From an uncultured Clostridia bacterium (GTDB lineage Bacteria > Bacillota > Clostridia > Oscillospirales > Oscillospiraceae): DNA of 64,000 bases. The stretch lies in assembly GCA_947307255.1 (NCBI GenBank), contig CAMZIO010000001.1, positions 88,721 to 152,720 of the forward strand, read 5' to 3'. Below the pieces are notes generated by a model that was not told the DNA's origin, searched no databases, and worked only from the letters and a program-made list of their open reading frames with translations. The first letter of the stretch is position 1; each line of letters opens with the position of its first letter. A program made the translations under genes and the position numbers. Positions 12,215 to 38,763 of the stretch are shown here, one piece after another.

Positions 12215-12571
12215 TCAACGCTTATCGCCGGCGTGGAACAAAAACGCCATCAAAACCCCGAATACCACCGCCGCGGCAATTCCGCCGGCAGTGGCGCTCA
12301 GCCCACCGGTCAGCACGCCCAGCCAGCCCTTTTCCGCCACCGCCTTCTCCACGCCCTTGGCCAGCGAATGACCGAAGCCAAGCAGGGGAACGGTCGCGCC
12401 TGCGCCGCCCCAGCGCACGATCCTGTCGTAAAGGCCGATCGCGGAGAGAAACACGCCTGCGACCACGTAGCTGGTCAGAATGCGCGCGGGGGTAAGCTTC
12501 GTCTTATCAATCAAAATCTGCCCGATCGCGCAGAGAACGCCGCCGCAGACGAACGCCTGGAAATACTCCAC
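12215..12571 (-). CDS. spoVAE: stage V sporulation protein AE
   Basis: A 118-residue membrane protein matching SpoVAE: MEYFQAFVCGGVLCAIGQILIDKTKLTPARILTSYV and then VPLLGFGHSLAKGVEKAVAEKGWLGVLTGG. SpoVA proteins form the dipicolinic acid channel of the spore inner membrane and are made in the forespore under sigma-G. It starts (GTG) directly after the spoVAD stop with a GGAGG site. This proves a sporulating ancestry for the host. Confidence 0.92.
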   Translation of the reverse strand: MEYFQAFVCGGVLCAIGQILIDKTKLTPARILTSYVVAGVFLSAIGLYDRIVRWGGAGATVPLLGFGHSLAKGVEKAVAEKGWLGVLTGGLSATAGGIAAAVVFGVLMAFLFHAGDKR

Positions 12572-12976
12572 TCAGGTATCCTCCTTTCCGGCGGCGAGAA
12601 TCACGGCGTGGCAAATGCCCGGCACGCTCTCGCCCTGGCATGAGGAGACCGGAGAGAGCAGCGCGCCCGTGGGAGCAAAGACGATGCGCCGCCATTTACC
12701 CTCGCGCATACCGCGCAGCAGATAGCCGTTGAGCACCGCCGCCGAGCATCCGCAGCCGCTGCCGCCGCAGTGCATATCCTGCTCTCGCAGGTCAAAAAGC
12801 AGCAAGCCGCAATCGTAATAGTTCCTGCGCATATCGAGGCCGTCGCGAGCAAAGAGGTCCACCAGAATATCGTGTCCCAGCCTGCCCAAATCACCGGTAA
12901 AAATGGCGTCATAGTCGGCCGGAGACGTGCCCGTATCCCGAAACAGGGTGCGCAGCGTGTGATACGCGGCGGGGGA
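12572..12976 (-). pseudogene. spoVAD: C-terminal part of SpoVAD, interrupted at the prophage junction
   Basis: The encoded segment PAAYHTLRTLFRDTGTSPADYDAIFTGDLG through CGCSAAVLNGYLL, FAPTGALLSPVSSCQGES and VPGICHAVIL matches the last ~130 residues of SpoVAD, a ~340-residue thiolase-fold protein that binds dipicolinic acid. Homology stops at the P-A-A-Y segment (12971-12976). Beyond it the frame reads ITSS and then unrelated MCVKVIVFFYCPI, which is phage-side sequence. The N-terminal two thirds are absent from the window. The gene appears split by integration rather than worn away, because the remaining part has no stops or frameshifts and keeps its motifs. Confidence 0.85.
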
Positions 12977-13047
12977 AGATGTAATTATAGGACAATAAAA
13001 GAATACGATGACTTTTACACACATTCATTGACTAGAAAACACACGAT

Positions 13048-13078
13048 CGTTCTGCGCGCACACAGCTTGTGCAGAACG
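13048..13078. repeat. inverted repeat near the left prophage junction
   Basis: CGTTCTGC and GCAGAACG flank an inner GCACA-CAGCT-TGTGC repeat. The nested dyad can form a long hairpin or bind a dimeric protein. It lies about 75 bp inside the prophage, in a gene-free stretch (13025-13301), where recombinase or excisionase arm sites are often found. Confidence 0.5.
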
Positions 13079-13172
13079 GAAGTTTCTTATAAAAACGAGC
13101 ACACGTACCACTAAAATAAACTCCGCTCAGAACGCGATTAAATGCGTCTGAAGGGAATCTGGCGAAAAAGAA

Positions 13173-13225
13173 AAGGCAGGTCATGAGACGTATAATCTCA
13201 TGCCTGCCTTAAACTTTTCGCACTT
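13173..13225 (-). terminator. terminator at the end of the late phage operon
   Basis: AAGGCAGG-T-CATGAGA / TCTCATG-CCTGCCTT forms a long stem (13174-13210). On the minus strand it is followed by TTCTTTTTC. It lies downstream of the last phage gene and would stop the very long late transcript before spoVAD. Confidence 0.85.
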
Positions 13226-13301
13226 TTAGACAACTTTCATTTTTTTGCGAAACACACACCCAAAGTCTCACAAAAAATGTCAAATGAAACCCCTCAAATA
13301 C

Positions 13302-13658
13302 CTAACCGCCAAAATGAAGTACAGCGGAAATAACGCCCGTTGCGATCAACGTGCACACCGCTGAAATGATGGCGACTTTTATAGAGTTCACATTCTTTGC
13401 AACCTGCTGATAAGGCTGGTTTGCTGTCTCATTCACCTTTTCGGAAAGCTTGCTGACCTGCTCGTTCGTGTCGTTTACCTTACCCTCGATCGTACCGACT
13501 CTGTTTGCGATTACTTCAACAGAGGATGCGATCTGATAGATCGCTTTCTGCTCCTTCTGCATCTCCTTCATATCCGCTTCCAGATCGTTGATACGATGAG
13601 TGTTTGATTTTGACCGTTGCTCTGTCTCGATCAGCAAAGTCTTTTCCTGTTCTGTCAT
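13302..13658 (-). CDS. XhlA-like/holin-associated protein
   Basis: A 118-residue protein that is mostly coiled coil (residues 8-85, with regular I/V/L heptads around MKEMQKEQKAIYQIASSVEVI and KVNDTNEQVSKLSEKVNE). It ends in a single transmembrane helix (VAIISAVCTLIATGVISAVL). This layout matches hemolysin XhlA-type proteins encoded beside holins in Bacillus and Clostridium phages, which help place the lysis pore. The ribosome site is AAAGGAGG. It is the last gene of the operon. Confidence 0.7.
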   Translation of the reverse strand: MTEQEKTLLIETEQRSKSNTHRINDLEADMKEMQKEQKAIYQIASSVEVIANRVGTIEGKVNDTNEQVSKLSEKVNETANQPYQQVAKNVNSIKVAIISAVCTLIATGVISAVLHFGG

Positions 13659-13679
13659 CAGAAAGAACCTCCTTTGGTT

Positions 13680-14036
13680 TTAGTTCTCTACCTTTGATTC
13701 CACAACAGAGGCGATTGCTTTATTGCTCTCAAGAATCTCCTTCATGTCTGCCAGCGCATCATCCACATAGCTGCAAAACAGCTGGAACGGGATGACATTG
13801 GCAAGCCATGGCATCCGCTCGCAGAATTCGGAGTATACTATTGAGAGTTTTAACTTGCCGGTGCCAGAGCCGAAATCGCGTTCAGCTAACAGCACCGCCT
13901 GCAGAAGCCAGCCTTTGATCTGTTCGTACTGCTCCTGCTTGCTCTGTTTACAAAACTTGGTTACCTTGATAACCGCCGCGCTTACGACGATTAGCGCGAA
14001 CACTATCTGGTACCAGTACTCTACGATAAAATTCAT
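13680..14036 (-). CDS. putative holin (single N-terminal membrane helix)
   Basis: The 118 residues start with one membrane helix (VEYWYQIVFALIVVSAAVIKV) followed by a basic segment (KFCKQSKQEQYEQIKGWLLQAVLLAERDFGSGTGKLKLSIVYSEF). The latter matches the LL-H family phage holin pattern (WLLxAVxxAExxxGxGxGKxKxxxVxxxF). It probably makes the membrane lesion that releases the endolysin. It lies between the XhlA-like gene and other lysis genes. Confidence 0.8.
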   Translation of the reverse strand: MNFIVEYWYQIVFALIVVSAAVIKVTKFCKQSKQEQYEQIKGWLLQAVLLAERDFGSGTGKLKLSIVYSEFCERMPWLANVIPFQLFCSYVDDALADMKEILESNKAIASVVESKVEN

Positions 14037-14047
14037 AGGTGCTCCTT

Positions 14048-14386
14048 TCAGATAGCCGGACTCTGCCAGCTGTCGTCCACAAACTCCGCGAACCCGTTTG
14101 CCTTGGCAGCGTCATAGGTAATATGCCCATCCGTATGATCAGATTTCGCCATGTTTAAATAACACGAACACACTGTTCCATGCGCAGTCCACGGCAAACC
14201 AACCATAGCACTGATCCAAGGCAGTGATCCGACGTACCCCTCGTGCACACAATAGAACGCGAGAAGTAAACCTCCCACTGTTACCACCCATAGCAGCTGA
14301 CGAATGTCGGAAATCAGCTGTTTGGAGTAATCTATTTTCCTTTTCTTCCTATTGGCAACACGTCTGCCATTTTTAGCAGTGTTCAT
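14048..14386 (-). CDS. small phage membrane protein in the lysis cluster
   Basis: A 112-residue protein with a basic N-terminus (NGRRVANRKKRKIDYSK), two hydrophobic segments (LLWVVTVGGLLLAFYCV; SLPWISAMVGLPWTA) and a polar C-terminal tail. It lies between the endolysin and holin-like genes and may be a second holin component. I do not recognise a named family. Confidence 0.55.
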   Translation of the reverse strand: MNTAKNGRRVANRKKRKIDYSKQLISDIRQLLWVVTVGGLLLAFYCVHEGYVGSLPWISAMVGLPWTAHGTVCSCYLNMAKSDHTDGHITYDAAKANGFAEFVDDSWQSPAI

Positions 14387-14392
14387 GGCACA

Positions 14393-15742
14393 TCACGCCT
14401 TGCCAAGCCAGCGTGCAAAGCGGTAGAAGAGACTGGCGATTTGTTCGCGCGTGGTCGTGTCGCGCCACGCATACATGGTATTACCGTCTTCGTCTTTGCC
14501 GACACCATTAAACATACCGATGCCAACAGCCCAATCTCTTGCATCCTTGCTCCAAGCAGCAGGAAGCCCACCCTGCAATTCCTTGCGGTACATTTCCATG
14601 TACTCTTTCCACTGTTCGTAACTCTGTTCGTAACTCATTTCTTCATCCTCCTTCGCTTCCAGCCGCGCATTCACGTCGGCTGCGATCTTCGGGTGCAGTG
14701 AGTACAGATACGCTCCGGGGCACGCCTTATTCGCAAACCAACGATGTACGGTCATATTCTGCTTGTTTGTCTGCCCGATCAGGCTCTTGTCACCTTGCCA
14801 CAGAAGCTTGGGGATGTGGTTGCGCTGACAGATATCCACAAGCAAACTGATCAGGGATCGATATGCTTTATCTGAAACGTGCCATCCTGTCTCGGCGCCG
14901 CCGTCGTTCGCCACCTCGATCGTGATCGCGCGATTGTCGTTGGAACTGGAAGATGTGCACCACGAACGGTTCGCCTCTTCCACATAAAGCCCGATACGCC
15001 CATCGGAATCGATGCCGTAGTTGCTGCTCGCCCTCATGCTCTTGTTCTGGAACAGCTGGCCGCACCTCTCCACGCTCAGATTACCCGCCATACAGTGGAT
15101 GCTCACCGTGTCGATGATGTGCGTCCGCTTGCCGGAGTGATTGGGGGAGAGGATCACCACGTCGGCCAGTGCGCTGTTCTCACCGCTTGCGGCAGCTTTC
15201 TGCTCAGCGACCTTCTGCTCGGCCGCGTTTTTTGCCGCAACTGCTTCAGCAGAATACTTGTCATAGTATTGCTGCCCGTAAGAAGCACGCTTTCTTTGCA
15301 CGGCATCGCTCTGATCTCTCGGCTTTTCAAATTGCAGCAGGATCAGGTCGGACGCCTCGCGCACAGACTTGGCGTTCGTCAGCTTCGTTGCCAGACCGTA
15401 CGCTCTTAGCTCTCCAAGCAGATATTCCATCTGCATGGTCAGGTCGCCAATAGACGTGCCTCTTTTCCGCGCAAAATTGTAAAGGTCGCGTTTCCGCGAC
15501 CAGTACGTCCATTGCGCAAGGCCGTAACCGGCCTTGTCGTAGATGAAGTTTTTATAGGTACCTTTATCAACCGCCTGCGTATAGGTATCATCAGTATACC
15601 CAAGCGACCGCTCAAATGTGTTCTGCAGGCTCTTGGGATTCAGTCCGCTCTCTGCAAAAAGATTCCCCATCAAACCCGCGACGCCGAAATCATTCAGACC
15701 AGCAGATTTCAAATAGCGCCAGATTTTTTCGTCGGCGTTCAT
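14393..15742 (-). CDS. endolysin with phage-tail-lysozyme and amidase domains
   Basis: It has three modules. The first ~125 residues (KIWRYLKSAGLNDFGVAGLMGNLFAESGLNP ... YGLAQWTYWSRKRDL) form a phage tail-lysozyme-like domain with the catalytic Glu in AESG. Residues ~200-365 form an N-acetylmuramoyl-L-alanine amidase_2 domain with zinc ligands in VSIHCMAG and HRWFANKACPG. The C-terminal ~75 residues (DARDWAVGIGMFNGV...TTREQIASLFYRFARWLG) resemble an SLH-like wall-anchoring repeat. The start at 15742 is 8 nt after GAGGAGG. The protein cleaves both glycan and stem peptide of peptidoglycan at lysis. Confidence 0.88.
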   Translation of the reverse strand: MNADEKIWRYLKSAGLNDFGVAGLMGNLFAESGLNPKSLQNTFERSLGYTDDTYTQAVDKGTYKNFIYDKAGYGLAQWTYWSRKRDLYNFARKRGTSIGDLTMQMEYLLGELRAYGLATKLTNAKSVREASDLILLQFEKPRDQSDAVQRKRASYGQQYYDKYSAEAVAAKNAAEQKVAEQKAAASGENSALADVVILSPNHSGKRTHIIDTVSIHCMAGNLSVERCGQLFQNKSMRASSNYGIDSDGRIGLYVEEANRSWCTSSSSNDNRAITIEVANDGGAETGWHVSDKAYRSLISLLVDICQRNHIPKLLWQGDKSLIGQTNKQNMTVHRWFANKACPGAYLYSLHPKIAADVNARLEAKEDEEMSYEQSYEQWKEYMEMYRKELQGGLPAAWSKDARDWAVGIGMFNGVGKDEDGNTMYAWRDTTTREQIASLFYRFARWLGKA

Positions 15743-15778
15743 GCGAGCCACCTCCTCGATAAAAGCATTGTTTTATAA

Positions 15779-16204
15779 TCAGACAATCTTGTAATGCGGC
15801 TTCTCTTCGCCGAAAAACCAATAACGAAGATAATCGTCAAACACGATTGCCACGACAGATAAGCCAACCCACGCAAAATAGAACGGTAGACAGACTTGCC
15901 CCAAAATGTTAAGATGGGGTCCAGAATAATCCCAGACTCCCAGCTTCAACCATATATTCACGATAACGCCGGTGATAAACTCAAGGCAGGTCACCAACGT
16001 TCCGCCGATTAAGGCTTGCCACACGATTCCTAATTCCCACGGGAAAAGCTCGTTGATTAAACCAATAGAAACAAAGCACAGTCCACCGAGAATAAACATG
16101 GATGGATGACTGTGCCCACGCCAAAGCATCTCAATGCCGACATAAATTGCGCCACCGATAACAGCGAGCACGAGCAGCTTGAGACATATCTTTAGCCGCT
16201 TCAT
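15779..16204 (-). CDS. putative ABC-transporter type IV-like membrane protein
   Basis: A 141-residue polytopic membrane protein with four to five helices. Motifs such as GLINELFPWELGIVWQALIGGTLVTCLEFITGVIVN and LGVWDYSGPHLNILGQVCLPFYFAW match the CmpB-like 'putative ABC-transporter type IV' family. In phages this family is often encoded next to the endolysin. Its phage role is unknown; it may be a holin-like or superinfection-exclusion factor. Confidence 0.75.
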   Translation of the reverse strand: MKRLKICLKLLVLAVIGGAIYVGIEMLWRGHSHPSMFILGGLCFVSIGLINELFPWELGIVWQALIGGTLVTCLEFITGVIVNIWLKLGVWDYSGPHLNILGQVCLPFYFAWVGLSVVAIVFDDYLRYWFFGEEKPHYKIV

Positions 16205-16205
16205 A

Positions 16206-16775
16206 TTAGTTGCTGAGCTTTGCCATGATAGCGTTCATCTGAGCCTGTGCAACAGCAAGCTTTGCGTTCATCTCAGACAGATACGGTTCAGGCAGAGTCA
16301 TACCATATGTGACAGCGGAGATTTCTTCAGCGCCGTCTAAAGACTGTACATACGCCTTTAGAGCGTTGTGATAAGTGGTCTGGGTTGTAATAAGTGTTTG
16401 CGCCGCAATGTAGATTTGGGCAATTTCAGTGGCTGTGTAGATACGGCAGACGCCACCATCCGATTGATACGGGAACTCTGTACCGCAAAGTTCAACGACG
16501 CGGAACAGGTTTGCGATATTTGCTTGGTCTTCGATGCTAAGATTAAAATGAACAGCCCCCTGTGTCAGTTCCAAATCAATACCGGCAACAATGATGGCAT
16601 TGCAACTCTTGGAGATTTCTGCAATCTTTGCTGCCTTGATAACAGCAAGAGAGTCATCCTCTCCGACAATCTCAACTACGTCCTCCATCGTGACCCAGTC
16701 GCGTTCGACGGCCTTCAAAAGACCATTCATGTCGATAACGCCAGACTGGTACATAGCTTTCAGTTTTTCTTTCAT
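16206..16775 (-). CDS. phage tail-region protein with XkdX-like N-terminus
   Basis: The 189 residues start MKEKLKAMYQSGVIDMNGLLKAVERDWVT, similar to the short XkdX-type proteins at the end of phage tail modules. The rest, including VTYGMTLPEPYLSEMNAKLAVAQAQMNAIM, looks helical. No enzymatic motif is visible. It lies between the host-binding genes and the lysis genes. Confidence 0.55.
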   Translation of the reverse strand: MKEKLKAMYQSGVIDMNGLLKAVERDWVTMEDVVEIVGEDDSLAVIKAAKIAEISKSCNAIIVAGIDLELTQGAVHFNLSIEDQANIANLFRVVELCGTEFPYQSDGGVCRIYTATEIAQIYIAAQTLITTQTTYHNALKAYVQSLDGAEEISAVTYGMTLPEPYLSEMNAKLAVAQAQMNAIMAKLSN

Positions 16776-16778
16776 CGG

Positions 16779-17048
16779 TTACACCTCCAGCGCAGAAAGA
16801 ATCAATTCGTCAACGAGGTCGCGCTGATGGGCAACCAAAGCACCACCGTCACATTTGGCAACGACTACGGTGTCAGCACCTTCGATGTCAGAATGACCTA
16901 CGAGATTGTAGGGCGTGCTTCTAAAGGCGACGCCGATAGCTTCGTCTTTAGTGGTCGGGGCGAAGCTGCCACTCTCAGTAATTTTGATGTACAGAACAGA
17001 GTCGGCCATACCAAGCTCGGTTCCGTCCAGTGTGATAATTCGATACAT
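16779..17048 (-). CDS. small phage protein, function unknown
   Basis: An 89-residue acidic protein, probably a beta sheet (MYRIITLDGTELGMADSVLYIKITESGSF, DTVVVAKCDGGALVAHQRD). It starts right after the preceding stop (TAAATG) with an AAAGGAGG site, so it is translationally coupled to the 17049 gene. Nothing identifies a function. The position in the host-recognition block suggests a tail-fibre accessory. Confidence 0.55.
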   Translation of the reverse strand: MYRIITLDGTELGMADSVLYIKITESGSFAPTTKDEAIGVAFRSTPYNLVGHSDIEGADTVVVAKCDGGALVAHQRDLVDELILSALEV

Positions 17049-17450
17049 TTAAGCGACCTCCTTTGCTCCTACCAGCTTTGCGATGTGTCGGAGCGTATCA
17101 ATATCGGCATTGAAGAAATCGTTGTTCCACAGCCAGAAGTCTGCGTACTCGATGCGCTTGTACGGCTGACAAGTGTGGTCATCCCAGACCTTGTCCCACC
17201 GGTTCTGATAGTTCGCATCGCGCTTGGCAAGCGTCTTTTGTATGGCTTGTGTCAGCTTCCCACGGAGCATACCTGCACCGTCATCGTCACGAGCAAAGAA
17301 CTGATGTGCGTTCTCACTCGTTACAACACAGAGCAGCTTGCCATCGTGGAAGATATACCCACCATTTTCTTCACATACAGTCATAGCGGGAAGATTTACC
17401 TCACCGCAAATTGCTTTGCCCTTGAAGCGTCTATGCACAACGTATTTCAT
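17049..17450 (-). CDS. tail-fibre region protein of unknown function
   Basis: The 133-residue protein begins MKYVVHRRFKGKAICGEVNLPAM. Its first ~70 residues are similar to the 21652-21885 product: both have NLPAMT-C..., a short beta section and SENAHQFF/SHIAHQYF. The C-terminal half is rich in aromatic and charged residues (WDDHTCQPYKRIEYADFWLWNNDFF). No known motif was seen. The ribosome site is GAGGAAAAAAGG. Confidence 0.6.
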   Translation of the reverse strand: MKYVVHRRFKGKAICGEVNLPAMTVCEENGGYIFHDGKLLCVVTSENAHQFFARDDDGAGMLRGKLTQAIQKTLAKRDANYQNRWDKVWDDHTCQPYKRIEYADFWLWNNDFFNADIDTLRHIAKLVGAKEVA

Positions 17451-17467
17451 CCTTTTTTCCTCTTTCT

Positions 17468-17611
17468 CTAAAAGTTTTCAATTCGCTCCGGCGAGAAGCC
17501 GAAAATCGAATAAAAAAGCCTACACAACCGAAGCACACGCTTGTGATCATCGTAGGACTCGAAGTATGCGAGCATTCCGTTTACGGAAGTCCAGAGGTCG
17601 TCGTATGACAT
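17468..17611 (-). CDS. small phage ORF (47 residues)
   Basis: This short frame encodes MSYDDLWTSVNGMLAYFESYDDHKRVLRLCRLFYSIFGFSPERIENF. Its ATG is preceded by GGAGAA 1-6 nt upstream of the start region. It fills the gap between the 683-residue fibre gene and the 17049 gene and is in the operon direction. The composition (helical, aromatic) is protein-like, but there is no recognisable family. Confidence 0.5.
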   Translation of the reverse strand: MSYDDLWTSVNGMLAYFESYDDHKRVLRLCRLFYSIFGFSPERIENF

Positions 17612-17657
17612 TTCTCCATGATTTCTTTGGCGTCTCGGTCAGACTGTTGATGCAGGA

Positions 17658-19709
17658 TTAGACGCGGAAAGCCGGGGCGACGCCACTGGAAAGCCATGCG
17701 TAGTCACCGTACCCGCTGCCGTTCGCGTTCACAGTGCAGAAGCCGGCGTCGTCGTCGTAATAAGGAGAACGCACCCACCACCAAGCAATGACACTTGTTG
17801 CGCTGTGACGGTATTTCACCTTCGAATTTCCAGCAGAGTAATAAGCATACTGCGCCTGATAGTTCTTTTCTGCAGAGTTCGCATAGTTGCTGTGTATGCC
17901 GAAAATCTCATACTCAGCCAGCAACGGAAGGTAGTCCACTGATGTAGTGACATTGGATGCTCTATTTGTGCCGCCGCCCGTGTTATCCGTGTAGATAGTC
18001 ATAGGCTGCATCACAGCACGGAGGTCAGACGGAAGCGCCGCCATCAAGGTGTTTGCAACAGGGTTGGTCGCAGTCGTAGCGGTAGCATCTCCATTGTTCG
18101 TATTCGTTGAACCAAGTACGTCATAGCGAAGGTCACAGCCCTTCCAACCACCAGAGTTGGTGTTAGAACTATGGTTCATATTGAAATACTTGGTGCCATT
18201 GGCGTAGCTGTTACCATATCCACCGTCAATGAGGCAGATATCCGTGCCACCGCTCAGCGCAGTCTTGAACGTACCAAAGTCAATACCGGTCGCACCGTTG
18301 TGGTTAAAACCGATGATGTAAACGTAGTAAGTGCCACTCACAGACTGCGTGCCAACAGTACCACTCACAGCGACAGCCTTACGGTCACCGACCGCCCAGT
18401 AGCTTGCGCCTGTTCCAGAAACACTGTGGATAGCCGCCCAAGAGTTATCGTTCAGCGTAGCAAGAATAAACTCAGCCTTGACCGTAACAGTTTTGCTTGC
18501 AGGCGCGGTATAGTTCGTACCAGCAGTACAACTCACAGTGATAGTGGCTTCACCGTTTGTCTGATTGACATGAGAAACGGTGACTGTAGTCCCGCTACGA
18601 GTAACAGTGGCAACTCCTGCCGCGCTGGAAGAAACGCTCAATGTGCCATCGTAGTTACCGCCGATAGTGAATGTATCAGTGAGCGTAGTCAGGTTAAGCG
18701 TAATGCTTGTCTTGCTCACAGTCAGCGTACCGGTTGCCTTGCCAATAGACCACGAGACATTCTTGGCGGTAGTTGTTCCATCAGACCAGCGATAGTCGGT
18801 CTTTGGCGTGAACGAAGCAGTATAACTGCCTGCGTTCGTACCGGAAGTTGTACCGCCAATCGTCATATAAGTCGTGTTATAATTGCTCCAACTCGGAGAC
18901 TGAGAAGACTTATTGTAGGTCAGTGTACCACTCTGGGCTGGTACGCTCGCAATCGTAATACGGTTTGCTGTACCAGTCGTCCGCTGAGACGTAGAGGCGT
19001 TGATGCCGCCGTCCGTGGTCTCTGGGAAGAAGGCAATGTAATACTTCGTTCCGTTCGTCAGACCGGTAATCGTCAACGGTGTGCTGGAATATTGGTTGCG
19101 TGTCGTGACCTTTAGCGTATAAACGGCGCTTGAATCATCCTTGCTGGTAGGGTAGCTGCCGCTCTTCACAACAATTGTGGTGCTTGCCCACGATGCCAGA
19201 GTCACGCCATCGGCAGAGATAGAAGCAGAAGGGTCAGTCCACTTAACGGTCATCTTACCGTTGCCTGCTTCAGAAGAAGCACTCATGCCGGTAACATTCC
19301 AGCTTGTGATGCCTGCAACTTGAACGGTCGGAATCGCATTGAATTCGTCATCCGTGCTGTCAGTGTAGGCATTTGCAGTTGTGTAGGGGAAGAACTTATA
19401 GTAATACTTCGTTCCGTTGGACAGACCACTGTCACAGAAGTAAGTATTCTTATAAGCGTCTCGTGTTTTACTATCGAGAACGATAGTGCCGTCGCGACGG
19501 CTTGTAGGCGCGGAGCCTGCCTTACGAACAAGCAGGGTGCCGCCCCAAGCAGCAATCGTAGAACCTGCCACAACGAGGTCATCGGGGTCAGTCCACTTCA
19601 CATAGACTTTTCCAGAAGAAACCTGCGTGGTAATACCGGAGACAGCCGCAAGTGTCAGACCACCACTGCCTGAACCTGCGCCGCCGGGGAAGTTAGATAA
19701 AATAGGCAT
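17658..19709 (-). CDS. tail fibre/receptor-binding protein with Ig-like domains and DUF6273-like tip
   Basis: The 683 residues begin with a glycine-rich leader. Two fibronectin-III-like repeats follow (around residues 20-130 and 130-245; each has a KWTDP strand and a GLxNGTKYYxxFFP strand). Next come MBG/Big_2-type Ig-like domains (GTLTYNKSSQSPSWSNYN; TLSVSSSAAGVATVTRSG) and a C-terminal domain with WWWVRSPYYDDDAGFCTVN and a final GVAPAFRV. The latter pattern (WW-RSP ... G-V-PAF) marks DUF6273, a C-type-lectin-like ligand fold seen at the tips of phage and surface proteins. It probably binds the host surface. The ribosome site is GGAGTGG. Confidence 0.8.
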   Translation of the reverse strand: MPILSNFPGGAGSGSGGLTLAAVSGITTQVSSGKVYVKWTDPDDLVVAGSTIAAWGGTLLVRKAGSAPTSRRDGTIVLDSKTRDAYKNTYFCDSGLSNGTKYYYKFFPYTTANAYTDSTDDEFNAIPTVQVAGITSWNVTGMSASSEAGNGKMTVKWTDPSASISADGVTLASWASTTIVVKSGSYPTSKDDSSAVYTLKVTTRNQYSSTPLTITGLTNGTKYYIAFFPETTDGGINASTSQRTTGTANRITIASVPAQSGTLTYNKSSQSPSWSNYNTTYMTIGGTTSGTNAGSYTASFTPKTDYRWSDGTTTAKNVSWSIGKATGTLTVSKTSITLNLTTLTDTFTIGGNYDGTLSVSSSAAGVATVTRSGTTVTVSHVNQTNGEATITVSCTAGTNYTAPASKTVTVKAEFILATLNDNSWAAIHSVSGTGASYWAVGDRKAVAVSGTVGTQSVSGTYYVYIIGFNHNGATGIDFGTFKTALSGGTDICLIDGGYGNSYANGTKYFNMNHSSNTNSGGWKGCDLRYDVLGSTNTNNGDATATTATNPVANTLMAALPSDLRAVMQPMTIYTDNTGGGTNRASNVTTSVDYLPLLAEYEIFGIHSNYANSAEKNYQAQYAYYSAGNSKVKYRHSATSVIAWWWVRSPYYDDDAGFCTVNANGSGYGDYAWLSSGVAPAFRV

Positions 19710-19736
19710 TTTACCACTCCGTTTCTATTTTCCTTC

Positions 19737-20321
19737 TTATGCATCATACGGACTGATTCCGTCCGGATAGTCAAGGGCGTAAACTTCAATAACATACGTC
19801 CCGTCTATCGTTCGAGAGTTTGTACTGTTGTATCGCTTGTAAATATTTACCACCCCATCAGGGGTAATAGAGTAACCAAAAACACCGTAGCCCGTCGTAC
19901 CGACATTTTGTGACCAGACAGAAACATCTGAACAGTAATGAGTGATTTTCAGCGAACCGGTATAATTAGATGTTGCGCCCCTTGCCGCATAGAGATTAAC
20001 AAAAAACGCATCTGAGCCATAGAAATATCCAGCGCGCTTCCCGGCCTTATCTCGAACGCGCACATAGATTATTTTTTTGCTAGTCCATGCCGCTGGACCA
20101 ATACTGAGTGTGGTCGCGGGGATGGCGGCAGTAGAGGTGATGTTGTATAAGGTCAGTTCCTGAGACCCAAGAAGCGTCCAACCTCGTGCGGCGCCAGTGA
20201 TTAACTGACCGCTTTTGTCCAACGCAGTATATCCGTTAGCCAAAACCTCTGGCGTTACTGTTACCACAGAGGTATCGATGAGTACGGTCCCGTCAGATAA
20301 TTGTACTTTGTTGTTTGCCAT
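19737..20321 (-). CDS. tail fibre-associated protein
   Basis: It begins MANNKVQLSDGTVLIDTSVVTVTPEVLANGYTALDKSGQLITG, the N-terminal motif shared with the next upstream gene. It then has a beta-rich region of about 140 residues. The start at 20321 is placed after AAGGAGCG rather than at the frame's first codon (20330). The shared N-terminal module probably attaches different tips to the same baseplate site (inference). Confidence 0.7.
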   Translation of the reverse strand: MANNKVQLSDGTVLIDTSVVTVTPEVLANGYTALDKSGQLITGAARGWTLLGSQELTLYNITSTAAIPATTLSIGPAAWTSKKIIYVRVRDKAGKRAGYFYGSDAFFVNLYAARGATSNYTGSLKITHYCSDVSVWSQNVGTTGYGVFGYSITPDGVVNIYKRYNSTNSRTIDGTYVIEVYALDYPDGISPYDA

Positions 20322-20335
20322 TCTCGTCACGCTCC

Positions 20336-20929
20336 TTAACCGATGGTGACAGTTTTACCTCCAGCAGCATTGTCGGAATAGGCAACGGGGATTGCCGCAA
20401 CGGTCACCTGAGCAATGTAGTTGTATCCCTGCGTTGTATTGGGTGTAACTACCTGCTGCGCGAAGGTTGGCGTCACGCTCTTTGTTTCTGCGTTGACCTC
20501 TTCCGTGCCGGACATGCTGCCTTCCACGCCAAGAATCGTAATGCCCTGGCGGATGTTTTCCGCGACGATCTTCGCCTGTTCGGTTGACGCGATGCCAACC
20601 CTTCCGGAACCGTCATGATAACCCTGCGGTACGACATACTCGCCATCCTTCGTGGCAATGTTGCCAGACACAGCACCACGGTTCGGCATAGAACCTGTAA
20701 CCTTAACACCATTGACATACGCTGTCTTGCCGGTAAGAATTTCCGCAGCAGCTGCATTGGCATCGCTGGTGTCCGCATCATAAGTATTTGTACCCGTGAT
20801 CTGTGCGCCGCTCTTGTCATGTGCAGTGACATTCTTTGCAAGCTTGTCCGGGGTAATAGTATCCTGAGTAAGGTCAATCAGTACGGTGCCATCACTCAGG
20901 ACGATCTTGTTGTTGTAAGTGTTAGGCAT
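20336..20929 (-). CDS. tail fibre protein with repeated attachment motif
   Basis: The 197 residues start MPNTYNNKIVLSDGTVLIDLTQDTITPDKLAKNVTAHDKSGAQITG, paralogous to the 19737-20321 gene. A DADTSDANAAAAEILTGKTAYVNGVKVTGSMPNRGAVSGNI segment, common in clostridial phage tail fibres, follows. The ribosome site is AGGAGG. This is a structural protein of the host-contact end of the tail. Confidence 0.75.
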   Translation of the reverse strand: MPNTYNNKIVLSDGTVLIDLTQDTITPDKLAKNVTAHDKSGAQITGTNTYDADTSDANAAAAEILTGKTAYVNGVKVTGSMPNRGAVSGNIATKDGEYVVPQGYHDGSGRVGIASTEQAKIVAENIRQGITILGVEGSMSGTEEVNAETKSVTPTFAQQVVTPNTTQGYNYIAQVTVAAIPVAYSDNAAGGKTVTIG

Positions 20930-20933
20930 ACTT

Positions 20934-21590
20934 TTATCCTCCTATAATCACAGTGTTGCCCCCGGAATCATTTCCGGTGACATAAACGGGAATTTCCTTG
21001 ACTTCAATATTTCGATCCAGGTATTTTTGTGATGTCTGCATCATAATGTCCGCGCCGATCTTCGGCGTGATGGTATACAATCCATCAAAAGCTGGAAGGT
21101 CTTGCCATGAGGCGTCCCCGTCCTGATTGCTGTTTTTCATAAGCACCTGACCAACGGTGCCGCCAGAAGGCATTTGGCTTCCAGAACCGGAGCTGACCGC
21201 CTTCCATACCGAATCGTCGCTGTCAAAATAGTAGAGAGCGCCGCTGACCATCCCAGGCTCTGACCCGCTGTAGATATAAACAGTGCCTTCGTCGACCATC
21301 TCATCCTTTGAAGACACCACGTCAATCGCAGCCACGTCTTTAATTGCTTCCTCTAAATCGGCCTTGGTTGCAATGTCTTTCGGTCGCAACCGAGTTTCCA
21401 CGCCGTCATTGAAATACCGCAGCATATCGGCGGTAATCGCAGTTACAGGAGCGCGCATACCTCCACCAGATCCGTTATCAAAGTCAAAGAAGACATGTCC
21501 GGTATCCGTGCAGTAGTACATATGCCCGCCATGTATTTCATGCGGGAGATTTCTTTCCTCACCGAACAAGAGCTTAAACGTCAAGTACAT
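20934..21590 (-). CDS. phage tail/baseplate protein
   Basis: A protein of about 218 residues. The N-terminal section (FKLLFGEERNLPHEIHGGHMYYCTDTGHVFFDF) resembles short beta-hairpin modules repeated in tail-fibre proteins of Firmicutes phages. A glycine/serine-rich linker follows (SSGSGSQMPSGGTVGQVLMKNSNQDGDASW), of the type used in fibre shafts. The C-terminus ends VTGNDSGGNTVIIGG, like the neighbouring fibre gene (AAGGKTVTIG). The start could be the ATG at 21590 or the GTG at 21593. Confidence 0.65.
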   Translation of the reverse strand: MYLTFKLLFGEERNLPHEIHGGHMYYCTDTGHVFFDFDNGSGGGMRAPVTAITADMLRYFNDGVETRLRPKDIATKADLEEAIKDVAAIDVVSSKDEMVDEGTVYIYSGSEPGMVSGALYYFDSDDSVWKAVSSGSGSQMPSGGTVGQVLMKNSNQDGDASWQDLPAFDGLYTITPKIGADIMMQTSQKYLDRNIEVKEIPVYVTGNDSGGNTVIIGG

Positions 21591-21611
21591 CACCCCTTTC
21601 CGAATATTGAT

Positions 21612-21639
21612 AAGAGCGACTGATCACTCAGTCGCTCCT
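21612..21639 (-). terminator. intercistronic hairpin in the fibre gene block
   Basis: GAGCGACTGA-TCAC-TCAGTCGCTC is a perfect 10-bp inverted repeat between the 21652 gene and the 20934 gene. On the minus strand it is followed by TTA and no long U-run, so it may be an attenuator or RNA-processing site rather than a full terminator. Confidence 0.6.
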
Positions 21640-21651
21640 TGAATAAAAGAA

Positions 21652-21885
21652 CTATTTGCTTGTAGTTAAACCATAAAGATTGGCGCAAGACCTAACGAAA
21701 ACGTTGCAGAAGCACCATATCACACCCACGCCATCCGCAAAGGCTTGGGTTATCTCCGCCAAAAAGTATTGATGCGCAATATGACTCGTACTCACGCATA
21801 TTGCATTACCGTTATAGTAAATAACATTACCAGCTCCACTGCAGTCTGTCATAGCTGGAAGATTTACATTCCCGCTTATCGACAC
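21652..21885 (-). pseudogene. truncated paralogue of the 17049-17450 gene
   Basis: The frame encodes SISGNVNLPAMTDCSGAGNVIYYNGN and SHIAHQYFLAEITQAF, aligned with residues ~14-75 of the 17049 product. The expected start is disturbed: a good GGAGG site is followed by ATG AGA TAA, and the homologous frame (DKEGVSISG...) lies one base out. It is either read from a GTG at 21885 or disabled by a single-base indel. The C-terminal half of the paralogue is missing and replaced by GVIWCFCNVFVRSCANLYGL. Confidence 0.5.
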
Positions 21886-21910
21886 ACCTTCTTTATCTCA
21901 TAGCCTCCGT

Positions 21911-22315
21911 TCAGCCAAGCAGCACAATGTCAACAGGAATGTCCATGTCCGGTAGTTCGCCGTCTGCCGCGATTGTAAGACTCCCAGCCTGCTGCCCTAT
22001 GATGGCTAATTGAGCCTCGCGCGCAGCCTGCCGCTGCTCATATGTCGCACTTTGCGCAACGGCAATCTCCCCATTCTGGTCTGCTTTTAAACCGGACACA
22101 CTGATTGTTTGCGTAAACGGAGCCTCTACTCCAGCCCAGCCACTTTGCAGTAAAGTCGCTGAAATATGCCCACTCATGTCCGCCTTGCCACCAAGCGCCG
22201 CGTCGATCTTATGCATGTTGGAGTTAGTCGCCCCCGCGACTTCTCTGCGCCAAGTTTGAAACCTAACAGAGGCGTCATCTGTTACATACAGATTGTAATT
22301 ACTTGTTGTTGCCAT
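21911..22315 (-). CDS. phage tail protein, probable fibre-attachment component
   Basis: The 134 residues begin MATTSNYNLYVTDDASVRFQTWRREVAGATNSNMHKIDAALG, a motif common near the start of Siphoviridae tail-fibre genes (the 'N-NMxKID' helix). A short beta region and a helical segment with YEQRQAAREAQLAIIGQQAG follow. The ribosome site is AAAGGCGG. It probably links tip and fibre. Confidence 0.65.
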   Translation of the reverse strand: MATTSNYNLYVTDDASVRFQTWRREVAGATNSNMHKIDAALGGKADMSGHISATLLQSGWAGVEAPFTQTISVSGLKADQNGEIAVAQSATYEQRQAAREAQLAIIGQQAGSLTIAADGELPDMDIPVDIVLLG

Positions 22316-22342
22316 TTGATGCCGCCTTTCTACTCTATCTGT

Positions 22343-22681
22343 TTAAAACGTACCGCATTCAAGCGCCGCCAAGACAGTACTGTCAATATCGTCCTGCGTT
22401 GAAAACGATGCGCTTTTATAGAACGTTGCAACATTTGTATCCGGATCAACCACTACATCTGTCACTGCGTTACCATCCCCGACAACTGCAATGCCACCAA
22501 CACCGAGAATCGTCGCGGGATCTGCGGCTTCCCATTCTGTCGGCTGCCCGTATGCATCGACGGCCTTGATAACAGCAATATTTCCGACTGACGCCCTTGT
22601 GATGCCAAGATCAAAAAAGCGCACAATCGTTGTATCGGTTTTCGCTTTGATAGTAGGCGACAATACTTTTGCATGAATCAT
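22343..22681 (-). CDS. phage baseplate/tail protein of unknown function
   Basis: About 112 residues from the ATG at 22681 (CAGGAGGACGGCGT site): MIHAKVLSPTIKAKTDTTIVRFFDLGITRASVGNIAVIKAVDAYGQPTEWEAAD. A beta-rich product, no known motif. The start overlaps the stop of the previous gene (22678), so translation is coupled. Confidence 0.6.
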   Translation of the reverse strand: MIHAKVLSPTIKAKTDTTIVRFFDLGITRASVGNIAVIKAVDAYGQPTEWEAADPATILGVGGIAVVGDGNAVTDVVVDPDTNVATFYKSASFSTQDDIDSTVLAALECGTF

Positions 22682-23010
22682 ACGCCGTCCTCCTGGAACA
22701 ACGTCCATCTCATGAGCATCTCAACAGGAGCGATTTCAAGATCGTCACCATTCGTAAGCGTTGGCCTGATATCCATCCAAAAGATGTATCCTTCCCGGAA
22801 CTTCGTGGTATCCTCTCTCGACCACGGAATGTAAATCGTATCGCCCGAACGCTGCACATCGCCGGTTCCGTCTGATTTCCAAACGCACTTCTTGACCGGC
22901 ACCCCGTTCTTTTGCTGCCCAAATACGATTTCAATATGGTCAATATCTCCCCAATAATCTGAGATACCTTCAAGCAAAACGGGCAAATGGGTTTTGACTA
23001 GCGATTTCAT
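22678..23010 (-). CDS. phage tail protein (beta-rich, unknown)
   Basis: Translation from the ATG at 23010, 6 nt after GGAGG, gives MKSLVKTHLPVLLEGISDYWGDIDHIEIVFGQQKNG and a beta-rich end (IFWMDIRPTLTNGDDLEIAPVEMLMRWTLFQE). Its size, composition and position match the small proteins seen between the tail tip and fibre genes in many clostridial siphophages. The biochemical role is unknown. Confidence 0.6.
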   Translation of the reverse strand: MKSLVKTHLPVLLEGISDYWGDIDHIEIVFGQQKNGVPVKKCVWKSDGTGDVQRSGDTIYIPWSREDTTKFREGYIFWMDIRPTLTNGDDLEIAPVEMLMRWTLFQEDGV

Positions 23011-23032
23011 GTCAACCCTCCATTCATTCATA

Positions 23033-23062
23033 AAGCCCGCAGGGATGTCCCTGCGGGCTTGT
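23033..23062 (-). terminator. strong intercistronic hairpin
   Basis: AAGCCCGCAGGGA-TG-TCCCTGCGGGCTT is a 13-bp GC-rich inverted repeat directly between two fibre-region genes. On the minus strand it ends in CTTT, so partial termination is likely. Confidence 0.7.
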
Positions 23063-23087
23063 ATTATTAAGTTTTATTCACGTATGT

Positions 23088-23588
23088 TTAAAGAATAATA
23101 ATGTCTGCATCCCCAAGCGTCATATTGTCGTATGCCGAGAGACTGCTGTCGTCCATATCGCTCAGCAACCGATAACGCCAAAGTGTCGTTCCGCCGATAT
23201 TCACGTCGATTACCATACCGCTCTTGATTTCAGTCCGGGACGTCAGTACAGCATTGACCACCATGTCGCTTGCAGCTTTTGTAATCTGCTTGATATGTGT
23301 GTTCGTATCGCCATCAAGCGTAATGGCGGAATCTATCTTCGCAGTCTGCTTTACATGATTACTGATAGCATCTTCGGGGATAGAAATAATAAGCCTGTTG
23401 TCAACCCTAATGGACGTACGGAAGGGAAGAGAGTATATCGTGATATCTCCGCCAACCTGCTTGTCGCAAATATAAACATTATAATTGCCAGGTAATCCGC
23501 ACTGTCTACTTAGATAAATATCAAACTCTTGATTGGTGCCTTCCGCGCTCTGATATTCGTCTACGAAAATATCAAACTGTTTCGGCAT
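23088..23588 (-). CDS. phage structural protein, function unknown
   Basis: A 166-residue beta-rich protein (MPKQFDIFVDEYQSAEGTNQEFDIYLSRQCGLPGNYNVYI...). It has repeated hydrophobic/polar alternation and a central ISIPEDAISNHVKQTAKI segment. No catalytic motif was seen. The AAGGAG site is about 10 nt before the start. It is followed by a hairpin at 23033. Confidence 0.6.
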   Translation of the reverse strand: MPKQFDIFVDEYQSAEGTNQEFDIYLSRQCGLPGNYNVYICDKQVGGDITIYSLPFRTSIRVDNRLIISIPEDAISNHVKQTAKIDSAITLDGDTNTHIKQITKAASDMVVNAVLTSRTEIKSGMVIDVNIGGTTLWRYRLLSDMDDSSLSAYDNMTLGDADIIIL

Positions 23589-23602
23589 GCATCACCAACT
23601 CC

Positions 23603-24001
23603 TTACGGGTTGCTCACCCGCAGCTGCAGGTCTCCCTGATTGATCGTCAGCGTAGTGCCGGACGTGATATTTCGTTGCGGATCAAGAGCACCATACATCA
23701 GCAAGTTGCCGTTTGTCGCCGCGTCATAAACAACAAAATGCGTCGCATTACCCCAGTTCGCTGTTGCTTCAGGGAAATTGACAGATGCGCTGTTTGCAAC
23801 AACACCGTCGTTCGGCGTACCAAGTTTTCCAGAAAGCGAGATACGCGCATACGCTCCACCGCTCGGCTCACTTACGCCAGTGCCGTCTGCATTCGGCGCC
23901 GTCTTGCTCAGACCGAGATAATATGTTGTCGGAATGGCAGGGCTTGTCTTTGTCTTAAAAACGTTGCCCGCCACCAGATTCAGAAAATAGGTAGTGTTCA
24001 T
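23603..24001 (-). CDS. phage tail fibre-region protein
   Basis: The 132 residues start MNTTYFLNLVAGNVFKTKTSPAIPTTYYLGLSKTAPNADGTGVSEPSGGAYARISL. This composition and the 'YLGLSxTxPxxxGxGVxEPxGGxYARxxL' pattern are common in phage proteins of the tail-fibre/adhesin region. It is a probable structural protein, copied with the fibre module. The ribosome site is AAAGGACGG. Confidence 0.7.
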   Translation of the reverse strand: MNTTYFLNLVAGNVFKTKTSPAIPTTYYLGLSKTAPNADGTGVSEPSGGAYARISLSGKLGTPNDGVVANSASVNFPEATANWGNATHFVVYDAATNGNLLMYGALDPQRNITSGTTLTINQGDLQLRVSNP

Positions 24002-24023
24002 TTATCTTCCGTCCTTTCGCTTA

Positions 24024-24419
24024 TCAGCCACGCGTAAACGGCTTGTTGATGTTATTGATAATGTTCATGATACCCTGCTTGGGGATCTCAACATCGCCGC
24101 CAGCATCACGAATCGTGATCTGATAAATAAACTTACCGGAAAGATCAACCGTGTCAGACGGGGAGAGCGTCACCTTCAGCACGTTGCTGGTAGAGTCAGC
24201 ACCCTGCGCCGCCGTCATCGCCTTGCTCACACGCGGCGCACCCGTCTTGTTGTTGTAACTCACGATGGAGAAATTCGCCGTGCAGCCGCCCACGTCAAAC
24301 GGAGAACCGTTCGCGTAGAAGTACACGTTGAACGAAAAGTTCTGCGTTTCTCCTCCGACAAAGTCGATGTCCGGCAATGTATATGGATTGTGGTCGCTGT
24401 ACTTCTGGTCATTACACAT
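24024..24419 (-). CDS. phage baseplate upper protein-like
   Basis: A 131-residue protein (MCNDQKYSDHNPYTLPDIDFVGGETQNFSFNVYFYANGSPFDVGGCTANFSIVSY). The 'FVGGETQxFxFxVY...GxPxDxxxCxxxFSI' pattern corresponds to an immunoglobulin-like domain found in phage baseplate upper proteins. It is followed by VDLSGKFIYQITIRDAGG. It probably forms part of the baseplate near the fibres. Confidence 0.65.
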   Translation of the reverse strand: MCNDQKYSDHNPYTLPDIDFVGGETQNFSFNVYFYANGSPFDVGGCTANFSIVSYNNKTGAPRVSKAMTAAQGADSTSNVLKVTLSPSDTVDLSGKFIYQITIRDAGGDVEIPKQGIMNIINNINKPFTRG

Positions 24420-24440
24420 AACCGTCGACCGCCTTTCTGT

Positions 24441-24620
24441 TTATTCTTTTACCTCAGACTTGGGAACCTCAGCAAACGCAACGCTCTGCAGCATTCTGCC
24501 GATCTCTTCCAGCATAACGATGCTGCCGCTCAGATTACCGAGATTCTCCTTGCCACACACAGTTACTCTGTTCAGTGCGCCAAGCACCGCGTCAAGGCGT
24601 TGTAATATTTCATTCTTCAT
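24441..24620 (-). CDS. small phage protein (59 residues)
   Basis: The short frame encodes MKNEILQRLDAVLGALNRVTVCGKENLGNLSGSIVMLEEIGRMLQSVAFAEV and so on. Its start has a very good site (AAAGGAGAACACAA) and overlaps the stop of the tail-tip gene by 11 bp, so it is translationally coupled. The predicted helical, small protein resembles the short 'hypothetical' proteins after tail-tip genes in related phages. The role is unknown. Confidence 0.7.
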   Translation of the reverse strand: MKNEILQRLDAVLGALNRVTVCGKENLGNLSGSIVMLEEIGRMLQSVAFAEVPKSEVKE

Positions 24621-28305: not shown

Positions 28306-28317
28306 TCCGTGCCCCCT

Positions 28318-29112
28318 TTATCCGGCCACATTGTACAGGAACCGTCCGGAAATCATGATGCTGCCATCTCCTGTCACGACCAGCTCGTTGTCTCCTTGAA
28401 CAAAGCGGGGGAACGTCATGTTAAATCCTTGGTAAAAGTCATGATTCTCGTTGTCGTAAATCATGCCGTTGTTGCAATCCACATAGAATTCGGAATAGGA
28501 GGGAAGGTTCTCGATCTTAAACTCTCTCCCGCCGTCGCTATTGTTCACAATACTAACGCTTTCCGGGCTGCTGCCGTTGGCGGTGAATGTGATCTTCGGG
28601 CGGAGATACTCATGGCAGGAACCATCATTCCGGAACAGAATGGACGTTTCGCCGTTGACGGTTTCCGTATATTCGAACGGATAACCGTATGCATACGGAC
28701 AGTCACACCGCACCACAGCCTCGAACGCATAAGGAAGCCATCCGTGATGGATCGGCGTCAGCTGTGTGATGAGGCAGCGGAACTGGCAGTGTTCCAGGTC
28801 GGGCTGGTCAATAGACAGCCACTGATAGTCCTGATGCCCCAGGAGCCACAAACTCAATTCCTCCATATCAAACCTGTCAAATGACTTTTCTAACGATCCA
28901 AATACTAATGTAAACTCTAGGGGTGTTGCGTGGTAGTTTACACCGTAGTGAATTGGCTGTATGCGATTAAGTAAACGAGTTTCCACGACCGAGGCTTTTG
29001 TGCCAAAACTAACTGGCTTTTGACCCTGGCCACCAAAATCATATAAATAAACGCCATACATATCAGATGAAACTCCGGCAAATGTAAAGCTGTAGGAGTC
29101 AAACAAGGTCAA
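28318..29112 (-). CDS. distal tail protein (Dit)
   Basis: A 264-residue protein of the SPP1/T5 Dit type: TLFDSYSFTFAGVSSDMYGVYLYDFGG, then YHATPLEFTLVFGS, DMEELSLWLLGHQDYQWLSIDQPDL and FRCLITQLTPIHHGWLPYAFEAVVRCDCPYAYG. Dit forms the hexameric ring joining tail tube and tip. The start appears to be TTG at 29112 with a GGAGG site that lies inside the 3' end of the GIY-YIG gene. Confidence 0.85.
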   Translation of the reverse strand: MTLFDSYSFTFAGVSSDMYGVYLYDFGGQGQKPVSFGTKASVVETRLLNRIQPIHYGVNYHATPLEFTLVFGSLEKSFDRFDMEELSLWLLGHQDYQWLSIDQPDLEHCQFRCLITQLTPIHHGWLPYAFEAVVRCDCPYAYGYPFEYTETVNGETSILFRNDGSCHEYLRPKITFTANGSSPESVSIVNNSDGGREFKIENLPSYSEFYVDCNNGMIYDNENHDFYQGFNMTFPRFVQGDNELVVTGDGSIMISGRFLYNVAG

Positions 29113-29918: not shown

Positions 29919-29988
29919 AAACAGTCACCTCTTTTCCCACATAGCAGATGGGGGAGGCAAACGCCCCCCCCCAATCATGTAAATTGTT

Positions 29989-36978: not shown

Positions 36979-37006
36979 ATAATGTTCTCACCATCCTTTA
37001 TAAAGA

Positions 37007-37041
37007 AAAGGATTGGCGAGAGCCAATCCTTAATCACCGTT
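37007..37041 (-). terminator. rho-independent terminator-like hairpin before the tape measure gene
   Basis: AAGGATTGGC-GAGA-GCCAATCCTT is a 10-bp stem beginning at the stop codon of the preceding gene. On the minus strand it is followed by TTTTCTTT. It lies in front of the tape measure gene and would lower its transcription relative to the upstream genes. Confidence 0.8.
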
Positions 37042-37641: not shown

Positions 37642-37642
37642 C

Positions 37643-38251: not shown

Positions 38252-38266
38252 AGTCAAATCCTCCTT

Positions 38267-38737: not shown

Positions 38738-38763
38738 TTGCAAAGGACATTACTGTCCTAAGC

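What the first reader, a model, noticed from the sequence alone, without database searches (positions are those of the whole stretch)
12572..12980. Prophage splits spoVAD: possible excision-controlled sporulation gene
Seen: the end of SpoVAD (about the last 130 residues) is intact up to 12976, spoVAE follows at normal spacing, and phage sequence begins at the break. Known: SPbeta interrupts spsM and the skin element interrupts sigK in B. subtilis, and both genes are rebuilt by excision during sporulation. Inference: this element does the same to spoVAD. A twist is that spoVA genes are normally expressed in the forespore; excision there would change the genome passed to the spore, unlike skin, which is lost only in the mother cell. 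If so, the phage would lose its host copy or must reinsert on germination, or the host has a second spoVAD.
Basis: partly seen in the sequence, partly recalled or inferred. Interest (0 to 1): 0.85.

Follow-up and report, generated by a model that had tools for sequence, protein, structure and literature searches.

The report
Mobile elements splitting spore gene spoVAD
In this bacterium a large prophage sits inside spoVAD, a gene for making spores, and different mobile elements cut the same gene at the same codon in 23 other genomes; cutting the element out would rebuild the gene in frame, so spore formation in these bacteria likely depends on such excision, which has not been observed.

Summary
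The last 134 codons of spoVAD (12572-12973, minus strand) are intact, spoVAE follows directly, and phage DNA runs from the break to 64000, where the contig ends. The other half and a serine recombinase tied to this phage were not found in the 86%-complete assembly.

Relatives explain the break. In 8 of 400 family genomes, this one included, spoVAD is cut at the same proline codon of NNMGAAMA-P-AA; a recombinase scan adds 16 genomes. Both halves were found in 18 of these 24; a second complete spoVAD in 1, on the element itself. The cutters differ (prophage; by eye, conjugative-type and mobilizable-type elements, islands) but share one clade of large serine recombinases. Halves rejoin in frame in 16 of 16 genomes tested. 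The window's junction carries such an element's arm (21 of 24 bases).

So spoVAD is a recurrent, precise integration site, as spsM is for SPbeta. Restoration by excision at sporulation is likely but unproven; plain disruption is a serious rival. The earlier cases found in print sit, as far as stated there, in mother-cell genes; spoVAD is a forespore gene.

The parts
12572..12973 (-). 3' part of spoVAD (134 codons including the stop), from the conserved proline codon 12971-12973
   Evidence: Pfam PF07451 positions 202-328; codon placed
12215..12571 (-). spoVAE, directly downstream of the spoVAD part
   Evidence: TIGR02839 above its cut-off
12974..12999 (-). attachment-site arm of the element (attR-type junction), read TTTATTGTCCTATAATTACATCTTCC into the proline codon
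   Evidence: 19 of 22 and 17 of 22 positions match the two arms of the G203 element; 21 of 24; arm pattern found only here and in G203 among 400 genomes
12974..64000 (.). prophage, one end at spoVAD, other end beyond the contig
   Evidence: phage families; colinear with the 114.9-kb viral contig G068; contig ends at 64000
13302..14386 (-). three small ORFs at the lysis end; two have weak hemolysin/holin-type matches, the third none
14393..15751 (-). endolysin
   Evidence: phrog_20388, E 3.9e-119
29989..36978 (-). tail tape measure protein
   Evidence: phrog_4211
51013..52803 (-). terminase large subunit
   Evidence: phrog_2, E 2.2e-15; relatives
53812..54276 (-). HU-like DNA-binding protein
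   Evidence: PF00216
54299..55348 (-). tyrosine recombinase inside the phage; unlikely to be the integrase
   Evidence: PF00589; relative G068 carries both this gene and a serine recombinase
57685..60399 (-). RNA polymerase of the RdRP/YonO-like type (YonO name recalled)
   Evidence: PF05183; 37.7% identical to Enterocloster phage PMBT24, about 26% over half its length to SPbeta-type phages

Best explanation
A large prophage is joined to the 3' part of spoVAD at the codon where elements with one clade of large serine recombinases cut this gene in other genomes; it was likely inserted by such a recombinase, and excision at sporulation is predicted to rebuild spoVAD in frame. Shown: the window junction, its match to the arm of an independent spoVAD element, the same cut in 23 other genomes, open halves wherever read, in-frame joins in 16 of 16, and a recombinase gene on the C-terminal-half side pointing the same way in 21 of 21 other loci. 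Inferred: this phage's own recombinase and the N-terminal half lie beyond the contig end (the related phage G068 has its recombinase just outside the lysis end, which would place it there). Predicted, untested: a small DUF6870 protein encoded upstream of the recombinase sets the direction of recombination; excision happens before or in the forespore, where spoVAD is expressed; and the excised element stays in the spore and reinserts after germination, or is lost from part of the offspring.
For: Window junction. Same cut in 8 of 400 family genomes and in 16 of 18 genomes picked by their recombinase loci, 14 of them already known to have spoVAD beside it. Both halves in 18 of 24, second complete copy in 1 of 24. 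C-halves of 20 of the 22 genomes that have one, and of 2 viral contigs, were read: 22 of 22 open to a stop, 127-136 residues. N-halves: 20 of 20 open to the cut. Joins: 16 of 16 in frame without a stop, aligning over 327-358 columns with intact SpoVAD; proline codon identical on both sides in 14 of 16. Halves on one contig and strand in 4: 4.7 kb (G203), 6.6 kb (G456), 19.4 kb (G427), 34.0 kb (G453) apart. Joined arms palindromic: 13 of 16 at or above the 99.9% point of shuffles (14 of 22; mean 9.1), three below at 11-13. All 22 spoVAD-linked recombinases fall in one 26-member group of an 87-row tree; two of the other four come from genomes with split spoVAD. Orientation 21 of 21. SpoIVA in 7 of 8 and GPR in 7 of 8 split survey genomes.
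Against: No excised junction or circle was looked at in reads, and none is available. No N-half in this assembly; its serine recombinases lie on contigs C2 and C31 and are not tied to this phage. The window is the one case without a recombinase near the C-half. A related phage (G293) sits in a genome with full-length spoVAD, so the phage type as such is not tied to this site. Insertions look young. A DUF6870-like ORF also accompanies 43 of 61 other recombinases, and its predicted fold matches nothing solved. Promoter scan with five recalled patterns: sigma-G-like 0 of 23, sigma-E-like 0, sigma-K-like 1; sigma-F-like 2 of 23, which no shuffle reached (mean 0.03), but too few to lean on. Non-phage cargo such as an arg-like operon (L124) would be lost if excision in the forespore were final.
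Confidence: 0.55

Rival explanations
1. Plain disruption: spoVAD is only a handy integration site, harmless in growing cells. Lysogens cannot finish sporulation, and such insertions are purged over time.
For: Insertions look young. Durrant et al. report conserved genes that are common serine-recombinase targets, with enrichment in competence genes (passages of PMC10083194). No clear sporulation promoter signal.
Against: A recombinase group found, by record titles, in Oscillospiraceae, Lachnospiraceae and other Clostridia keeps this target, which would be poor if every lysogen lost its spores. Halves were open in each case read. One element carries a complete spoVAD (L125), as expected if losing SpoVAD costs something.
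Confidence: 0.3
2. Rescue copy: this phage carries its own complete spoVAD beyond the contig end, as the L125 element does.
For: L125 has two recombinase genes, then a complete spoVAD with a changed attachment site (MSPSSQST), then the left-over C-half; the N-half is on another contig of that genome.
Against: Only 1 of 24 split genomes has a second complete copy; none was found in G203 and G427, whose whole elements are in view.
Confidence: 0.08
3. The N-terminal half was deleted in this strain and the gene is dead.
For: No N-half found in G000, nor in G004, rated 100% complete.
Against: Contigs end inside the elements in both; the att junction is intact; 18 of 24 split genomes keep both halves.
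Confidence: 0.05
4. Assembly chimera that joined a host contig to a phage contig.
For: The assembly is fragmented and incomplete, and no reads were available.
Against: The join falls on the exact att codon, and the arm is 21 of 24 identical to that of an independent element.
Confidence: 0.02

Closest known systems
SPbeta prophage in spsM of Bacillus subtilis (SprA/SprB)
   Same: Large prophage inside a sporulation gene; large serine recombinase; in-frame rejoining; distantly related RNA polymerase gene. The profile of six spoVAD recombinases matches SprA/YokA along most of its length.
   Different: spsM excision is confined to the mother cell (passages of PMC4191935); spoVAD is a forespore gene; here excision is unobserved.
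gin element in gerE of Bacillus cereus
   Same: Non-phage element with serine recombinases in a sporulation gene (abstract and passages of PMC5595907), like the small spoVAD islands.
   Different: gerE acts in the mother cell; rearrangement there was shown in vivo and in vitro.
skin in sigK, vfbin in spoVFB, vrin in spoVR, yin in yabG
   Same: Elements that interrupt sporulation genes (passages).
   Different: skin, vfbin and vrin are described as sitting in mother-cell genes; that yabG is one is recalled. None is in spoVAD.
Enterocloster phages PMBT24 and CB457P1 group
   Same: 97- to 107-kb phages of a gut Clostridium-class host with the same type of RNA polymerase (37 to 38% identity).
   Different: Their integration sites were not examined here.

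Membership tests
Sporulation-gene intervening element (skin/SPbeta/gin kind) | Element interrupts a sporulation gene | tested here: met
   C-half of spoVAD joined to phage DNA at an att codon
Sporulation-gene intervening element (skin/SPbeta/gin kind) | Both gene halves kept, one at each end of the element | tested here: inconclusive
   Window: contig ends first. Other genomes: both halves found in 18 of 24; on one contig and strand in 4
Sporulation-gene intervening element (skin/SPbeta/gin kind) | Precise rejoining restores the reading frame | tested here: inconclusive
   Met in 16 of 16 other genomes joined; not testable in the window
Sporulation-gene intervening element (skin/SPbeta/gin kind) | Element encodes its own site-specific recombinase for that site | tested here: inconclusive
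   Other genomes: yes. Window: a tyrosine recombinase mid-phage, no relative of the spoVAD serine recombinases in the 51 kb seen
Sporulation-gene intervening element (skin/SPbeta/gin kind) | Excision during sporulation | not testable with these tools
   no reads or cultures
Large serine recombinase (the relatives' enzymes) | Resolvase domain, Recombinase domain, zinc ribbon | tested here: met
   L100:9838-11502 has PF00239, PF07508, PF13408 above cut-off; the others were compared by alignment only
SPbeta-type phage | YonO-like RNA polymerase plus gene order | tested here: inconclusive
   Polymerase about 26% identical over 54% of its length to SPbeta-type phages, 29.3% over 98% to Bacillus phage BUCT082; gene order not compared

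The most novel reading that the evidence does not exclude
spoVAD elements are the first gene-intervening elements that are excised in the spore-forming compartment itself: the forespore cuts the element out to make SpoVAD, carries it as a circle through dormancy, and reinserts it at germination, so a heritable genome is opened and closed once per spore cycle.
Probability: 0.27. Interest if true: 0.92.

Novelty: new variant of a known kind. Interest (0 to 1): 0.72.

Why it matters
In the known cases described as mother-cell genes, the rearranged genome dies with the mother cell, so the element is never lost from the lineage. A forespore gene as a target breaks that rule: the host must give up spores, carry a spare gene, or cut and restore a genome that is inherited. 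The spoVAD family gives many natural cases, including a 4.7-kb element, to test which of these happens. It would also bear on how gut Clostridia make transmissible spores.

Tried and rejected
Tyrosine recombinase 54299-55348 as the integrase: judged unlikely, because it lies mid-phage and the colinear phage G068 also has a serine recombinase at the expected end.

Serine recombinases elsewhere in G000: one on C2 and a broken frame near the end of C31, neither near spoVAD; the C2 enzyme gave no match to the G203 enzyme at E 1e-5.

Other broken spoVAD genes among the 21 genomes re-examined: 10 have partial matches ending elsewhere (contig ends or frame breaks, by coordinates) and were not counted; 3 had no match. 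Two genomes with very weak best matches (G025, G352) were not re-examined.

Viral contigs with the att arm: one hit (L284), a contig with tail-type ORFs and no match to SpoVAD, the recombinase or the window phage; judged chance. The first viral scan with one SpoVAD protein found no relative.

Promoter motifs ahead of DUF6870: not usable. DUF6870 fold search: no match at E 0.001. Excised form in L119: its recombinases lie upstream of deoB-like genes in a genome with an intact spoVAD, so a different target.

Papers: none in the held library has both spoVAD and serine recombinase, or DUF6870. spoVAD with prophage gave 8; of these I read passages of PMC6907783 (spoVA genes as cargo, not as target) and PMC3738446, the other six only as listed. 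One search listed 4 papers, of which I read passages of two (PMC4191935, PMC5595907). One search returned 6,277 papers; the 10 listed do not contain spoVAD. Searches listed 2 and 3 papers; of the two I saw only the listing. Many subscription papers are not in that library.

Full report
Observation. The minus-strand ORF 12572-13024 matches SpoVAD only from model position 202 to 328 (E 2.8e-49); spoVAE follows directly. Aligned with intact genes from relatives, the similarity starts at the proline of NNMGAAMA-P-AAY, codon 12971-12973. From there phage sequence runs to 64000: endolysin, tape measure and terminase, an HU-like protein, a tyrosine recombinase and an RdRP-family polymerase. The contig ends at 64000. 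The genome is a 1.66-Mb, 61-contig assembly, 86% complete, with no other SpoVAD match; its spoVAC-like gene is on another contig beside topoisomerase-like genes.

Same cut elsewhere. A search of 400 family genomes found SpoVAD matches in 354. I re-examined 21 genomes: those whose best match looked partial, plus some same-genus ones. Eight are cut at model positions 200-208: G000, G004, G139, G203, G261, G292, G336, G427; ten have partial matches that end elsewhere, three have none. Junction reading shows N-halves ending and C-halves beginning at the same proline codon. G203 and G427 hold both halves on one contig and strand, 4.7 and 19.4 kb apart. G203's contig is the same as JALCSB010000004.1, titled Intestinimonas sp. 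(same length and a 100% recombinase match).

The recombinase. The six other survey genomes with a C-half (G004, G203, G261, G292, G336, G427) each have a 555-597-residue large serine recombinase in the element (alignment A1, 45-53% identical to the first row). 15 of these 80 have spoVAD sequence within the fetched flanks of up to 10 kb (one is G203 itself). In IMG/VR 2 of 80 do. In a quick maximum-likelihood tree of 87 recombinases all 22 spoVAD-linked ones fall in a 26-member group (SH-aLRT 87; midpoint root).

No spare copy. I searched 18 of the genomes behind these 80 loci: the 14 with linked recombinases other than G203, and the 4 unlinked group members. Of the 14, 13 hold both an N-half ending at 203-207 and a C-half starting at 194-202, and G452 only a C-half. 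Of the 4 unlinked, G463 has both halves, G462 an N-half, G461 an intact gene, G460 no match. With the survey that makes 24 split genomes; both halves in 18; a further complete spoVAD in 1 (G457 = L125, on the element). Two C-half matches include a stop (G459, G451), but upstream of the proline, in the element arm: read from the proline, the C-halves of 20 of 22 genomes and of 2 viral contigs are open (22 of 22); those of G455 and G463 were not read. N-halves are open to the cut in 20 of 20.

Attachment site. In all 16 genomes for which I held both halves, joining them at the proline codon gives an open frame that aligns with an intact SpoVAD over 327-358 columns with 0-8 gaps. The proline codon is identical on both sides in 14 of 16, as expected of a short shared core; it differs in L110, whose N-half is inverted relative to its C-half, and in L115. 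The two element arms, brought together, are palindromic around the codon: 13 of 16 reach the 99.9% point of shuffles (14 of 22; shuffled mean 9.1), three do not (11, 12, 13).

The window's junction. Its arm matches the G203 arm in 21 of 24 bases; the next best window 24-mer has 17. A degenerate arm pattern occurs in 2 of 400 family genomes, only at these two junctions; the reversed control pattern gave no hit in the rows shown. This makes an assembly accident unlikely. The window differs from the 21 other loci that show both parts in having lysis genes, not the recombinase, on the C-half side. The colinear viral contig G068 (34 window ORFs matched) has its own serine recombinase just outside the lysis end, which on integration would put it at the far, N-half end. 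That is an inference; G068's enzyme is only 28% identical to G203's over 354 residues, and was not tied to spoVAD. Relatives of the window's terminase were found in 3 other of 400 family genomes: G293 has a full-length spoVAD, G080's spoVAD match stops at a contig end before the site, and G214 has a full-length match. So this phage type does not always use spoVAD.

Elements differ. G203 carries a chemoreceptor, a DUF6870 protein and the recombinase. By eye, without family scans: G261 has conjugation-type genes, L124 an argCJBD-like operon, G453 a relaxase-type gene and other cargo. L125 carries a complete SpoVAD with MSPSSQST at the site. A DUF6870-like ORF (own profile from seven seeds, four of them confirmed by Pfam) lies upstream of the recombinase in 23 of 26 group members but also in 43 of 61 others; its role as directionality factor is a guess from position and size. 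The 88-residue model (mean pLDDT 77) matched no solved fold at E 0.001.

Are the hosts spore formers? SpoIVA is found in 7 of 8 and GPR in 7 of 8 survey genomes with split spoVAD; the misses are G336 (68% complete) and G292 (97% complete). This was not tested in the other 16.

Timing and place. Five recalled promoter patterns were scanned ahead of 23 DUF6870-like ORFs: sigma-G 0, sigma-E 0, sigma-A 0, sigma-K 1 (chance level), sigma-F 2 (shuffled mean 0.03, reached by 0 of 200 shuffles). Two of 23 is too little to assign a compartment.

Age. In one search each of the six genera with a split gene also has species with full-length spoVAD. So insertions come and go, while the recombinase group persists. 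This speaks against old domestication in any one host, and fits either reversible insertion or repeated purging.

Literature. [quoted passage not shown] gin and yin are further cases. spoVAD is listed among sigma-G-dependent genes with important forespore functions (passage of PMC3738446). No paper listed by my searches treats spoVAD as an integration site, as far as titles, abstracts and the passages seen show.

Verdict. The cut is a real, recurrent serine-recombinase site in spoVAD. Regulated excision is the best single explanation of why a recombinase group keeps this target while both halves stay open and a second copy is rarely present, but plain disruption remains a serious rival.

Noticed in passing
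L125:4801-6351: Element carries a complete spoVAD with MSPSSQST instead of MAPAA at the att site, followed by the host's left-over C-half: a replacement copy that may be immune to the recombinase.
   Followed up: partly
L110:2195-8204: N-half of spoVAD (with a spoVAC-like ORF) is inverted relative to the C-half on one contig; inversion or assembly error.
   Followed up: no
L124:5259-9458: Arginine-biosynthesis-like operon (argC, J, B, D by eye) inside a spoVAD-splitting element.
   Followed up: no
window 43719-44318 and 49175-49822: Two ~200-aa ORFs, HNH-like by eye, that match the same place of G068, where the terminase match begins only at residue 91; relatives may carry an intron in the terminase gene.
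   Followed up: no
window 29109-29918: ORF that looks like a GIY-YIG homing endonuclease (by eye) between tail genes.
   Followed up: no
window 57685-60399: 904-aa single-chain RNA polymerase of the RdRP family, near HU-like and tyrosine recombinase genes.
   Followed up: partly
L038 (G004 contig 42): G004 is rated 100% complete, yet the N-half of its spoVAD was not found in the assembly.
   Followed up: no
L119:2776-6281: Two tandem recombinase ORFs of the spoVAD group's kind in a genome with intact spoVAD, upstream of deoB-like genes: a possible switch of target.
   Followed up: partly
window 11581-11789: Two tRNA-Ser genes just outside the spoVA genes; not the attachment site here.
   Followed up: no
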